64,000 nucleotides of DNA from Oryzias latipes (lineage: Eukaryota > Chordata > Actinopteri > Beloniformes > Adrianichthyidae). Positions within the stretch are counted from its first letter, which is position 1; the number at the start of each line of letters is the position of its first letter. The position numbers and the translations under genes were made by a program. The stretch lies in NCBI RefSeq assembly GCF_002234675.1, contig NC_019879.2, forward strand, positions 20,641,855 through 20,705,854, given 5' to 3'. Shown here piece by piece: positions 11,201-17,200 of this stretch. Under the pieces are notes generated by a model. It made no database searches. It was not told the DNA's origin and saw only the letters and a list, made by a program, of their open reading frames with translations.

Positions 11201-14200
11201 TACAGTGTGACCAGAATACTTCCTTGATCAGGCCTTTTATAATGCCATCATGCCTCCATTGTCTCAGAAAACGAGCACGTGTGCAAAGAACGTGCAGAGC
11301 TGGCGCCCTAATTTAAATGTGTTTAACGGGGCAGACGTTCCCCTCAAATACACAATTATGGAAGGGATTCGCATCTTTCTTATGACTGCTCATGTTTGTT
11401 TCACAAATAGAGGGCTTAATTTGTAGTTTTTCTCGATTTAAGTCTTTTCAAATCCGTCATTTATGATCACTTTAACAGACAGATTCAGGCTGCCTGCCAG
11501 TGTCCTTGTTTTTTCAGCAATTTCTGCTCAGTCACTGTTAAACAAGTGATTCATGAAGACCAGAACTGGGCAGCTAATGAATAGGGATAAACTCCAAAAC
11601 ATCTTTTTTTTCCTCCCCATCATTTTCTTCAAAACATAAAAATATATACAGTTCAGTCCTTTTACGGACAAAGAATTTAGCGATCTTCCCCTGGATCTTG
11701 CAGCACTCACCGCCAGCGTGCTCTCCCCCACGTTAGAAGCAATGAGGCCATCGATGGTGCCGTATTCAGCGTCTCGCGGCGTCAGTCTCTCCATTTGATT
11801 GCGATGGATGCGTCTGAACACGAAGACGGCCAAAGCAGAGAAAAAGATGAGGGCAATGATTGGTGCCACAATAACAGTAACCAGGGTGGTCACACTGTAG
11901 GCGGAAAGCACATGATCTGCAAAGAAAGAGAAAGCAGCGACTTCACTTCCATGCACATCATCGGCCCAGTTTTGTATCAGGTGAAATTATGGCTTCATTT
12001 ATAGGGATTTAAACAAAAAATAGTGAGTTTTCCATGTCTGCAATCTAGAAAAGATAAGCGAGGCCATGAGACGTGAGCCTGGAATTCTTTGCCATGGTTT
12101 TCTTCCATCTGAATGGTCCACAGATGTGGAGATAAAACCATATCAGAGAGCTTAAGCTAAAACCAGATGTGGGTGTGTGCGTGAAAAAAACAAGAGCTTT
12201 GAGTCTTCAGCACACTCACACTGTGGATTTGTTCTATGAACGGACTCCATCCACAGTGTCTGAACCATCTTACAGCAAAAACTATTCAGTTCTGCCTGCA
12301 GCCCACTTCTGCTTTGGAGTTTGTATTAAAAAAAAAAAAAACTTTCAGGATAAAACGTTTTAGCATTTAAACTGTTCAACTAAGAAAAAAATATCAAAGG
12401 AAACTAGGCATTTAATACCATTAAAATGTGCTGCATAGTTTTGAGCGTGTTTTTTTAATTACGAAACTGAATCTTCTACAAAAAATGTTTACTTCAAGTC
12501 TATCCAAAATATTTTTTTATCACCAATGATAAATAACAGTGAATTGGACTCAGAGGAATTATCCTTCCTTATTGCCTCCACCTGCAAAAACAATGGCTCA
12601 TTAAAGGCTTCTGAGTTCTGCCAAGAGGAAATGACAAAAAAAAAGTCTAAAGGAAAATCCCAAACCCTAAAAATGAAGATAGTTTTTTGGCAAGTTCAGG
12701 AAATGTGTATTTATTCTATATATAAATATTTATGGGTGATAAATGATAGGTGTAAGATTTCTCAAATTAAAATAAAGTAAATGTGATGGAATAGCTCTCC
12801 TCATTTTAAATATTAAGGATGCTTCATAGTGTAGTTTGGTTGAACAGTGCAGGATCTTGTTTTTAGTGAGATTGATGAAAAATAAATAAAGAAATGAGCT
12901 GTGATATTTTAACCGTATTGGTTTTTGTTTTTTCCCCACAAACTGTAACACTAACCTCACTGTTTTTTCTGTTCTCAATTCTAAAGTCTTGGTAACTTCA
13001 GAGGTTTAACCAGTTCTGTTCCATAAAGATATCTCTAATAAAAAAGTTACAGTCGTGACTCGTTTCTGTGGTTGTAGTGCATTCTGGGTAGTGCTGTGTT
13101 GTACCTTTGGGAGGCAGCTGAACAGTGATGTTCATGTTACACAGGTGTCCCTGGCAACACTCAACAATCTGATCTCTGGAGGGTGGGGTCTTGCAGGTTA
13201 GTGTGCTCTGCTCGTAGACCTTAAAGCAGCCTTTCTGGTACACCGTGGTTCCAGCACTGTCCGTTAGAGAAGAGAAACACTGGTGGCCCCTGCAGCGATT
13301 CCCTGTAACACACGAGCTGCCCTCACACACGCACTCATGCTCCTCTTTAGTGACGGGCTTCAAAACCTCCTCTGGAAAAGAGTGACGGGGGAAAAAATGA
13401 ATTAAAATTAGCGTTTCATAATGAAAGCTTTTAATAGTTTAACTCTAAGTGGAATTTCTGTCTAATCCCTAGTGCCATAAGGCCAATGATTAAAGGCAGC
13501 CAACGCAAAAGTGTACAGTTACCTTTTCCAGGGGGGTGCACAGTGACGTTCATGTTACACAGGTGGCCCTGGCAGCACTTGACGGCATATAGCGGCGAGG
13601 GCGGCGTGGCACAAACGGCTCTGCCCTCCTCGTCGTCCCTCAGGCAGCCCTTCTGTTGGCCGGCTGCCCCGTCAATCACCTTCAGAGAAGAGAAGCAATG
13701 CTGCCCAATGCAGCGCTGTTCCTGCTCACACACTCCGCCCTCACACACACACTCCTGGTCTCTGAGGACTGGTCTGTCGGCAGACGGTTCAACATCTGAT
13801 AAGAGGAAGGAGAGATAGGAGAAAACCATTAAAGCAATACCATCGATAACCCATTCAATTACATGGCATTCGCTGGCGAGCAGCATGCACGCAGGTGGAA
13901 GCATCTCTACGCTGAGCTTTCACTCGAAAGCCGCACAAATGAGTTTATTTTGCAGCATGAAATCCAACACCTGCTGGAATCAAATGGATTTCCTGCCAAC
14001 ACAGCCATCACTCATTCAAAAATGAATACAAGCTGAAATGTTATGTTCCTGTTTCTCAGGCCACAAATACTGAAATGAAAATGAGCAGCTCACAAATATG
14101 AACAATACTTCAGTGTATTGAAAATCCACATGAATGGTTTACATTTTAACTTAATACACTGAAACAGATTCACTGGTTTAAACTGCCTTAGCTGTGGTGA

Positions 14201-17200
14201 ATATTTATAACACCGGTTGCTTAAAAGCTGCTTAGTCAACTTTCAAGCAACCAGTGTTGACCTTATAACAAATATTCTATTTAATTTGTTTGTTTTGATT
14301 GCTTGAAGAGCAAAAAAAATTCCACTTGTTTACATGTTTTCTCTTGAAACTATGTCAAAGATAGCCATAGAAAACGTTTTCAATCCCTTAAAAAAATTCA
14401 AATTTCAGATCCAATGTTTGAGTTGTTTTGAAAATCTGCCAAGAATCAGGCTTTTATTTTGAAAGCAAACAAAAGTTGCACCTAGTTTGAATAAGATGAG
14501 CACGTCTTGTATAAAAACTGAACAAGAAAGGGTCAATAATTTTGAGTGTGTTTCTGAGGTGCCCGTTTGCAAAAATGTCACCTTTCACAGGAGGCACCAG
14601 GGAGATGTTCATATTGCACAAATGTCCAAAGCAGCACTCCACCACCAGCTCAGGAGCAGGAGACTTTCTGCAGCGCAGAACCTCCTCTTCTTTAGAAACA
14701 ATGCATCCCTTCTGGAAGACCGGCTTCCCGCTCAAAAGTGACAGCGACGCGAAACACAGCTGGCCAAAGCAGGAGCTCCCGGCGCAGTGCGCTTCATCAC
14801 ACAAACAGGCGTTTGTCAAACCGCTCATGCCTGGAAAAGAGAAAAACTTTGGATTACACCTCACTTTTAATAATTACAAGTCCTGCAGTGAAGGACAATC
14901 ATTTGGAAAAGCTGGTAACTCACAGGGAGTACAATCCTTTTTGAAATGTTAAGTTGTCTTTCTGCTTTAGCAATAGCGGTATTAGGACCAGCCAAAGCCT
15001 GGATTCTTTTCTGGGACTGATTGTGCTCTAAGTATCGTCACAGTAGCTTTTAGAACTGGAAATAAAAATGAAGCTGCAAAAAATTGACCAAGGAAAACAT
15101 CCTATTAGGGTTAGGGTAGAGGGAATTATTGAACTCCTTTGTAGTGTAGCTTTCATACAATATTACGTCAGAGAAGGGAGTTTCTCTTTAAAATAATTAT
15201 AATTGTATGGTTGAAAAAGATAAACAGTGTCATTGACTGCATAGGAGAACTGGACTGAGCGAGTGTCACATCGTCTGGCTCCAACAAAACAAAGTCAGTT
15301 CATATTTTTGCATATGTTGGAGCTAGATGGGATCGGTAATAGGCCTGCACAATATACCGCAAATTTATCGTTATCGCGACATTAAGCTGTTCAATATGCA
15401 TACCGCAAAAGACGGCGAAAATCGCAATAAATGGTTACCTTAAATGTGCTAAAACAATCTCATGGCAGCTTGAAATATTAAACAAATGAAATAAATCCCT
15501 TTATGCATTTAACCAATCAGAGGACCCGTTTACGTTGTTGATCAATCAGATGAGCCCTTTTATGTTTGATGTTTGCCTCCTATGTCGACGAGGGTCATTT
15601 GGAGTATCATTTTCAAACTGTTGCAGTGAAATGGAAATGATGTTTTTGGTTGTTTTGCTGTTTGTTTATATACCGCGAATTATATCGTTATCGCAATATT
15701 AATCACCAATATTGCATATCGCGAGTTTTCTTCATATCGTGCAGCCCTAATCGGTAAGCAGCGATTGGTCCAAGCTGGTCTGAGTCAACATTTCTATGGC
15801 AACCACTCTCACCAATTAAAGGTTTGGCGTGGGACAGCGGCCACCACCTACTTTTATCGAGGCATCTCATTGGCCAGTTTATAACTTGAATAACTTCCAA
15901 CAATGAAAGATGAGCAAGAACATGTTAAAAAAAAGGTATCATAGCAGGAATGGTTATTCTGACAAATTATGATGACCAAGTCAATTGAGCTCTGAGGAAT
16001 TTGGCTTCTTGGAGCCAGCGAGTACTTCCTGTTTGGAACATGACGGGAGAGGGGTCACTCAGTCCAGTTTGCTTCTACAGTCAATGGGCAGCACGAATAA
16101 CTGTGTTTTAAGTTACAAAACATACTTATATAAATATGCAGAAAAAAATTCATAAAGTCATGTTTGAAAACTCTTTCATCTAAAAGTACCAGTATTGAAT
16201 CCACTTGATGTTTCTCTTATTACATTTTATCTGAAAAAACAACAGCAAACACGTCTGTTTGCAAGATGACCTTAATTTTTTTTACATGAAGTGAAAAGAT
16301 TTGTTAAAAATCAAAGATCCTTTTAAAGACCCACTCCAATGCAAATCCTGTTTTTGGTGTTTTTAATATGTTCTTGTAGCATTTTTCTTCTGAAGGAAAA
16401 CATTTATAAAAGAATTAACAATAAAATCGTGTTTCTGACTTTTTCCTTATTCCAATCGTGATGGATTAGGAGTAGATAAAAACCCGCCTTTGAAAAAGCT
16501 CTCAATTGTGATGCAGCATCTGAAGTAGGCAGGCCAAAGTCTCCCTGCTCTGCTCCATTCTGATGCATCTACTTGCATCGAAACAGATCCCTTAAATCAT
16601 ATTTTGTCCTCATCTAAGCTGGCGTGTAGCCCGAAACTGTTTGGCTGGATAGCTCTGACATTGCACGGTACTGCCAATGTTAGGTTGGGGTTGTGAGGGG
16701 CTGTAAGTTAGCAGGAGAGTGTAAACAAAGGGATGAGGAGATATCTGCGGAGGGTCACTCTGCGCCAAAAGTCCGGCGCATAGCCTGTGTCGGCACTGCA
16801 GAAACGACACAGGCTATTTGATTTTGGTTAAAAACTGCACAAACACAAGTAAAAGACCTCTGGGAACGCTTTGAAAATAGATAAAAATATATTCGGAGCG
16901 GGGCATCAAATGTCTCAAGAACTGAAAAAGCTCCTCGTTGAGGGTTGTTTTACTGTGTGCTTCAATTGTAGTTCTGAGCATGAACCCTCACTGCTGCATC
17001 CTGTTCATTACCAGAATGTCCACAATTTCTGCCACCCCCCAAATCTACTTGCTGTCCTGAAAATTGCTGGTGAGTTCAGAAATGAGTTCATTAAAAAAAA
17101 AAAAAAAAAAAACGAATTCTCCAGTCTTCATACTGTCAAATCCTGCACTCATTCATTTGTCGAATAATTTAAAATAGTAACATGCAGGAATATGCGTCAT

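What the first reader, a model, noticed from the sequence alone, without database searches (positions are those of the whole stretch)
13105..14830. Three intact tandem copies of the ligand-binding exon in acvr1
Type I TGF-beta-superfamily receptors are known with one extracellular three-finger domain, encoded in ACVR1 mainly by one exon. Here three successive exons each encode a complete domain with all ten cysteines, a retained N-glycosylation sequon and functional-looking splice sites. All three are phase 1-1 (267, 273 and 249 nt). The locus could make a receptor with three stacked ligand-binding domains (681 residues), or switch among domains by alternative splicing (about 507 residues each). 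Either would be a new way to diversify BMP/activin sensing from one kinase. The three copies differ strongly in the finger loops, which suggests divergence in ligand choice.
Basis: partly seen in the sequence, partly recalled or inferred. Interest (0 to 1): 0.93.

Follow-up and report, generated by a model that had tools for sequence, protein, structure and literature searches.

The report
Known triple-domain fish acvr1 receptor
This fish gene for a growth-factor receptor carries three copies of its ligand-binding part in a row; the copies are real and look functional, but the same arrangement has already been described in medaka and reported for a very large group of bony fishes.

Summary
On the minus strand, three consecutive phase 1-1 exons (249, 273, 267 nt) each encode a ten-cysteine activin-receptor domain with one N-glycosylation sequon. 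Spliced in series with the signal, transmembrane, GS and kinase exons they give an open 681-residue receptor whose GS and kinase part is 301 of 337 identical to an ACVR1 chain. Neutral drift rarely or never keeps such copies intact (0-1 of 4000 simulations at 25% divergence, 0 at 30% and above). The claim of a new architecture fails. Trumpp et al. 2023 (PMC10501582) cloned medaka Acvr1 cDNA with three ligand-binding domains (LBDs); Jatzlau et al. 2026 (PMC13187141) report the triplication as common to all Clupeocephala. The residue matching human R206 is 378 here and 378/379 in medaka, which fits serial inclusion. Domain switching by splicing is possible by phase, but nothing here shows it. 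The membrane-proximal copy C is closest to human ACVR1 (61%), then B (51%) and A (39%). Most likely C binds ligand while A and B tune or restrain binding; for ACVR1 that is inferred by analogy with BMPR2 and TGFBR2.

The parts
17735..17798 (-). acvr1 coding exon 1: start codon and signal peptide (coding part), ends in phase 1
   Evidence: ATG at 17798, donor gtaagc after 17735
14582..14830 (-). LBD exon A (membrane-distal, outer), 249 nt, phase 1-1, 10 Cys, sequon NIS; 31 of 79 aligned residues identical to human ACVR1
13523..13795 (-). LBD exon B (middle), 273 nt, phase 1-1, 10 Cys, sequon NVT; 40 of 79 identical to human ACVR1
13105..13371 (-). LBD exon C (membrane-proximal, inner), 267 nt, phase 1-1, 10 Cys, sequon NIT; 49 of 80 identical to human ACVR1
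11711..11916 (-). transmembrane and juxtamembrane exon
   Evidence: open in frame with canonical splice sites; transmembrane nature by its hydrophobic stretch
9561..9660 (-). GS-box exon, contains the residue matching human R206 (residue 378 of the 681-residue model)
8193..8339 (-). kinase exon 1
7691..7966 (-). kinase exon 2
6681..6878 (-). kinase exon 3
5336..5466 (-). kinase exon 4
5110..5244 (-). kinase exon 5 with the stop codon

Best explanation
This is the teleost acvr1 (ALK2) gene with the already published LBD triplication of Clupeocephala. The symmetric phase 1-1 exon was multiplied in tandem in an ancient fish, so the extra exons add whole three-finger domains without breaking the frame. 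By default all three are spliced in series, giving one BMP/activin type I receptor of about 681 residues with three stacked LBDs. The inner domain C, closest to human ACVR1, most likely makes the productive ligand contact. The diverged outer domains B and A are kept intact and most likely tune ligand capture or restrain complex assembly. Shown here: exons, frame, splice sites, cysteine retention, identity ranking. Shown in print: the three-LBD cDNA, protein and signalling in medaka, and the origin in Clupeocephala. Inferred: that this fish splices serially, and the division of labour among C, B and A.
For: Intact serial model with residue 378 matching human R206 (that R206 is the R of TVARQ is recalled); the medaka three-LBD Acvr1 has R379 (also written R378) there. 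GS/kinase identity to ACVR1 chain 6eix is 301 of 337 = 89.3%, near medaka acvr1 (90.6%) and above medaka acvr1l (82.8%) as printed. Identity to human of C 61.2%, B 50.6%, A 39.2%. Inner LBDs are reported as the binding and signalling ones, and outer LBDs as repressive, in elephant-nose fish Bmpr2a and zebrafish Tgfbr2a. Neutral retention is rare: 0-1 of 4000 at 25% divergence, 0 of 4000 at 30-45%. No sign of enforced exclusive splicing among those tested: introns between LBD exons are 786 and 151 nt, no match to simple U12 patterns in the four introns around the LBD exons, no inverted repeats of 16 nt or more (seed 9) in 13000-15000.
Against: No RNA data and no sequence of another fish were available here. 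The donors of all three LBD exons lack G at +5 while the seven other donors of the gene have it, and C's donor is the lowest-scoring of the ten (54 of 683 GT sites in the gene score as high), so some exon skipping is conceivable. The medaka paper reports at least two acvr1 transcripts and speaks of splice variants with altered LBDs. In medaka the three-LBD receptor gave the highest baseline reporter activity and responded to BMP6, which does not suggest strong inhibition by outer domains; in horse and frog TGFBR2 the outer LBD did not impair function, and in chicken it bound as well as the inner. Synonymous distances are saturated for A-B and A-C. In a six-row tree A, B and C formed one group in 0% of 200 bootstrap trees; an AU test did not reject their grouping (p 0.227).
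Confidence: 0.88

Rival explanations
1. The three exons are alternatives: each mature receptor carries one LBD, chosen by tissue, so one kinase serves several ligand preferences.
For: All exons are phase 1-1 and any subset stays in frame (8 of 8 combinations). LBD donors are unusual at +5 (3 of 3 lack G against 0 of 7 other donors). Marginal single-LBD splicing of TGFBR2 is reported in chicken and horse. The medaka paper mentions alternatively spliced acvr1 variants with altered LBDs.
Against: Medaka cDNA and protein carry all three LBDs. No enforced-exclusion signal was found among those tested: intron lengths, U12 patterns, inverted repeats. The in-frame triple product would not be removed by nonsense-mediated decay (inference).
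Confidence: 0.06
2. Only exon C is functional; A and B are passive leftovers that drift neutrally or are skipped.
For: A and B are less like human ACVR1 than C (39.2% and 50.6% against 61.2%).
Against: All ten cysteines, the sequon, frame and splice sites are intact in A and B. Neutral simulation kept ten cysteines and an open frame in 22 and 13 of 4000 at 15% divergence and 0 of 4000 at 25% (A and B). pN is below pS for all three pairs.
Confidence: 0.04
3. Assembly artefact or several collapsed genes.
Against: Copies differ at 37.5-50.2% of aligned codon bases; the gene model uses one signal exon and one kinase; a three-LBD cDNA was cloned from medaka; no N in the window.
Confidence: 0.02

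Closest known systems
Medaka (Oryzias latipes) Acvr1 with three LBDs (Trumpp et al. 2023, PLoS ONE, PMC10501582; outline, search passages and the section on R206H signalling seen)
   Same: Three tandem LBDs before one kinase; residue matching human R206 at 378/379 there and 378 here; LBD identity to human 61.8% there and 61.2% for copy C here; kinase 90.6% there and 89.3% for GS plus kinase here.
   Different: The passages seen do not say which LBD the 61.8% refers to, and spans may differ.
ACVR1 LBD triplication of Clupeocephala and other LBD multiplications in ACVR1L, BMPR2 and TGFBR2 (Jatzlau et al. 2026, Nat Commun, PMC13187141; outline, parts 1-4 of 11, Discussion, splicing methods, one of three parts of the references and search passages seen)
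   Same: Same gene, same single-exon unit, three copies; inner copy closest to the human receptor, as reported there for BMPR2 and TGFBR2.
   Different: In the parts and passages seen, binding and signalling of single LBDs are tested for BMPR2 and TGFBR2, not for ACVR1.
Human ACVR1 (ALK2)
   Same: GS box, kinase and ten-cysteine LBD.
   Different: One LBD in human, three here.

Membership tests
Type I TGF-beta/BMP receptor ACVR1 | GS box followed by a type I receptor kinase closest to ACVR1 | tested here: met
   Of 32 PDB sequences at E up to 1e-60, the 11 best are named Activin receptor type-1; the next (3my0, receptor R3) scores 550.9 bits against 708.1 for the top. 301 of 337 identical to 6eix; the 29-residue GS stretch differs at one position, Q here and E there (recalled as an engineered change of that chain)
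Type I TGF-beta/BMP receptor ACVR1 | Ten-cysteine ectodomain (Activin_recp) | tested here: met
   3 of 3 copies above the Pfam cut-off, 10 Cys each; the fold itself could not be predicted
Clupeocephalan three-LBD acvr1 | Three complete LBD exons in tandem, same phase, in one acvr1 gene | tested here: met
Clupeocephalan three-LBD acvr1 | acvr1 rather than its paralogue acvr1l | tested here: inconclusive
   Identity of kinase (89.3%) and copy C (61.2%) to human, and residue 378, fit medaka acvr1 (90.6%, 61.8%, R379/378) better than acvr1l (82.8%, 40.0%, R239) as printed. No acvr1l sequence was at hand, and bonytongues are reported with three LBDs in acvr1l
Clupeocephalan three-LBD acvr1 | Transcript with all three LBDs in series | not testable with these tools
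   No RNA data; shown for medaka in PMC10501582
Clupeocephalan three-LBD acvr1 | Species belongs to Clupeocephala | not testable with these tools
   Window source not given; the genome search on the own genome did not complete in 4 tries
Mutually exclusive exon cluster | A mechanism that prevents joint inclusion (steric, U2/U12, paired intron elements, frame) | tested here: inconclusive
   None found: introns 786 and 151 nt, no U12 pattern, joint inclusion in frame, no inverted repeats of 16 nt or more in 13000-15000. Shorter or longer-range pairing and regulatory proteins were not tested

The most novel reading that the evidence does not exclude
The three ACVR1 domains have split ligand duties. 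C keeps the ACVR1 role, while the outermost A has moved towards ALK1-like binding (for example BMP9/10): its best score against an ALK1 (receptor R3) chain is 34.7 bits, compared with 23.5 for C and 17.7 for B. One receptor could then sense or sequester a second class of ligand. The ALK1 likeness rests on pairwise scores; A still scores higher against ACVR1 (57.5 bits), and a six-row tree joined A to ALK1 only weakly (72/60).
Probability: 0.07. Interest if true: 0.6.

Novelty: already known. Interest (0 to 1): 0.17.

Why it matters
As a discovery it adds little: the triple-LBD ACVR1 is in print for medaka and reported as common to all Clupeocephala. The window does independently confirm the exon anatomy and gives numbers for how unlikely such intact copies are under neutral drift. 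It also marks an open question: in the parts of PMC13187141 seen, binding and signalling of individual LBDs were tested for BMPR2 and TGFBR2 but not for ACVR1. ACVR1 is the gene mutated in fibrodysplasia ossificans progressiva, so a fish model built on a three-LBD acvr1 carries a ligand-sensing half that differs from the human one.

Tried and rejected

Search of the window's own genome for PF01064 (to find the acvr1l paralogue) did not complete four times.

Pairwise dN/dS: pS is 0.759 (A-B) and 0.798 (A-C), beyond correction; for B-C dN is 0.403 and dS 1.19. pN is below pS for all three pairs, but there is no reliable ratio per copy.

A six-row protein tree of A, B, C (N-terminal tails trimmed) and human ACVR1, ACVRL1 and BMPR1A stretches was unresolved: 77 of 90 columns kept, 0 of 3 inner branches starred, two end branches of length 10. 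At face value it goes against a fish-only origin of the copies (one group in 0% of 200 bootstrap trees), but AU tests rejected neither A+B+C (p 0.227) nor A+B+C+ACVR1 (p 0.34) as a group. It settles nothing.

Rfam over the whole window gave 0 matches at gathering thresholds. A search for acvr1 with mutually exclusive exons and fish listed 5 papers, none on this subject by title and abstract start. Of the papers listed by four other searches, two describe three-LBD acvr1, judged by title, abstract start and term counts for those not opened.

The donor scores use base frequencies recalled from memory; the +5 letters do not depend on them, the ranks do.

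Full report
Observation. The minus strand of 5110-17798 holds one coding gene of eleven exons with canonical AG/GT borders. Between the signal exon (17798-17735) and the transmembrane exon (11916-11711) lie three exons, A (14830-14582, 249 nt), B (13795-13523, 273 nt) and C (13371-13105, 267 nt), all phase 1-1. 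Each encodes ten cysteines and one N-glycosylation sequon, and passes the Pfam Activin_recp cut-off. The serial product is 681 residues with one terminal stop. All 8 tested combinations of inclusion stay open, with single-LBD products of 501, 509 and 507 residues.

Identity of the gene. The GS and kinase part is 301 of 337 identical to chain 6eix, and the 11 best of 32 PDB sequences at E up to 1e-60 are named Activin receptor type-1. Each LBD copy hits an Activin receptor type-1 chain best among solved chains. Upstream of the gene, on the plus strand, are an ORF with a phosphorylase-superfamily match (39039-39530, PNP_UDP_1) and an ORF with a sub-threshold DUF5524 match (34848-35384, 33 bits against 35.6). 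The phosphorylase would fit UPP2, which I recall as a neighbour of ACVR1 in human; that synteny is from memory.

More than chance, and maintained. Copies share 40-49% protein identity. Copy C evolved neutrally to 30, 40 and 45% DNA divergence kept all ten cysteines and an open frame in 0 of 4000 runs each; the best runs kept 9, 8 and 8 cysteines. Because those levels load the whole pairwise distance on one lineage, each copy was also run at lower levels: at 25%, 0, 0 and 1 of 4000 (A, B, C); at 20%, 3, 1 and 2; at 15%, 22, 13 and 18. pN is below pS for all three pairs, but pS is saturated for the two pairs that involve A. A short-word BLAST (E up to 1) of introns A-B and B-C against introns sig-A, B-C and C-TM gave only 10-11 base matches between different introns, so the duplications look old and not like an assembly error. 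The window-wide tblastn listed nothing beyond the three copies better than E 0.55.

What is known. Trumpp et al. 2023 (PMC10501582; outline, passages and one results section seen) cloned medaka acvr1 cDNA and state that it carries three LBDs. The Halo-tagged protein ran at 130 kDa against 100-110 kDa for single-LBD receptors and responded to BMP6 in a reporter assay. The residue matching human R206 is numbered 379 (also 378) there and is 378 here. Jatzlau et al. 2026 (PMC13187141; outline, parts 1-4 of 11, Discussion, splicing methods, one of three parts of the references and search passages seen) state that medaka acvr1l has one LBD. They place a first ACVR1 LBD duplication in early ancestors of Osteoglossocephalai and a triplication common to all Clupeocephala, with later losses in Clupeoidei and gene loss in Cyprinoidei. 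They also describe multiplications in ACVR1L, BMPR2 and TGFBR2. The finding is therefore an instance of a published feature.

How it works. Serial inclusion is the likely default. Medaka cDNA has it; the triple product is in frame; introns A-B and B-C are 786 and 151 nt; simple U12 patterns are absent from the four introns around the LBD exons; and no inverted repeats of 16 nt or more lie in 13000-15000. Linkers between the last cysteine of one domain and the first of the next are 26 and 24 residues. The paper's limit of 36 residues for gripping both sites of one ligand was modelled for human TGFBR2 and counts linker residues in another way, so it only hints that one ligand dimer is not gripped twice. 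Identity to human ACVR1 falls from C (61.2%) to B (50.6%) to A (39.2%), the pattern reported for inner against outer LBDs in BMPR2 and TGFBR2. There the inner domain binds and the outer ones restrain signalling in elephant-nose fish Bmpr2a and zebrafish Tgfbr2a. By analogy C is the main binding domain and A and B tune it. For ACVR1 this is inferred. Against it: the high baseline and BMP6 response of the medaka three-LBD receptor, and the horse, frog and chicken TGFBR2 cases in which the outer LBD did not impair the receptor.

Against and open. The donors of all three LBD exons lack G at +5, whereas the other seven donors have it, and C's donor scores lowest of the ten. The three share ancestry and are not independent, but this leaves room for partial skipping, as does the medaka paper's mention of alternatively spliced variants with altered LBDs. 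Copy A scores higher against an ALK1 chain (34.7 bits) than C (23.5) or B (17.7). The tree that could test this is unresolved, and at face value it does not group the three fish copies, though AU tests do not reject that grouping.

Verdict. Observation confirmed; architecture already known; interest low.

Noticed in passing
13102-13107, 13520-13525, 14579-14584 (minus-strand donors): All three LBD exons end in AAG and have a donor without G at +5 (A gtgaca, B gtaact, C gtacaa), while the gene's seven other donors have +5 G; C's donor scores lowest of the ten.
   Followed up: partly
14582-14830: Copy A resembles an ALK1 domain more than copies B and C do (34.7 against 17.7 and 23.5 bits); a small tree was unresolved.
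   Followed up: partly
39039-39530 (+): ORF with a phosphorylase-superfamily match (PNP_UDP_1, 29.3 bits), probably part of upp2 (recalled).
   Followed up: partly
34848-35384 (+): ORF with a sub-threshold match to DUF5524 (33 bits against a cut-off of 35.6).
   Followed up: no
52041-52478 (-): Charged, coiled-coil-like ORF without a Pfam match at E 0.01; by eye and from memory it resembles CCDC148, a recalled neighbour of UPP2 in human.
   Followed up: no
27644-28222 (-): ORF with a Tc-type transposase domain (HTH_Tnp_Tc3_2, 50.9 bits), probably a transposon remnant.
   Followed up: no
59597-59977 (+): Long run of alternating I and Y codons at the end of an ORF, pointing to a TA-rich microsatellite.
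   Followed up: no
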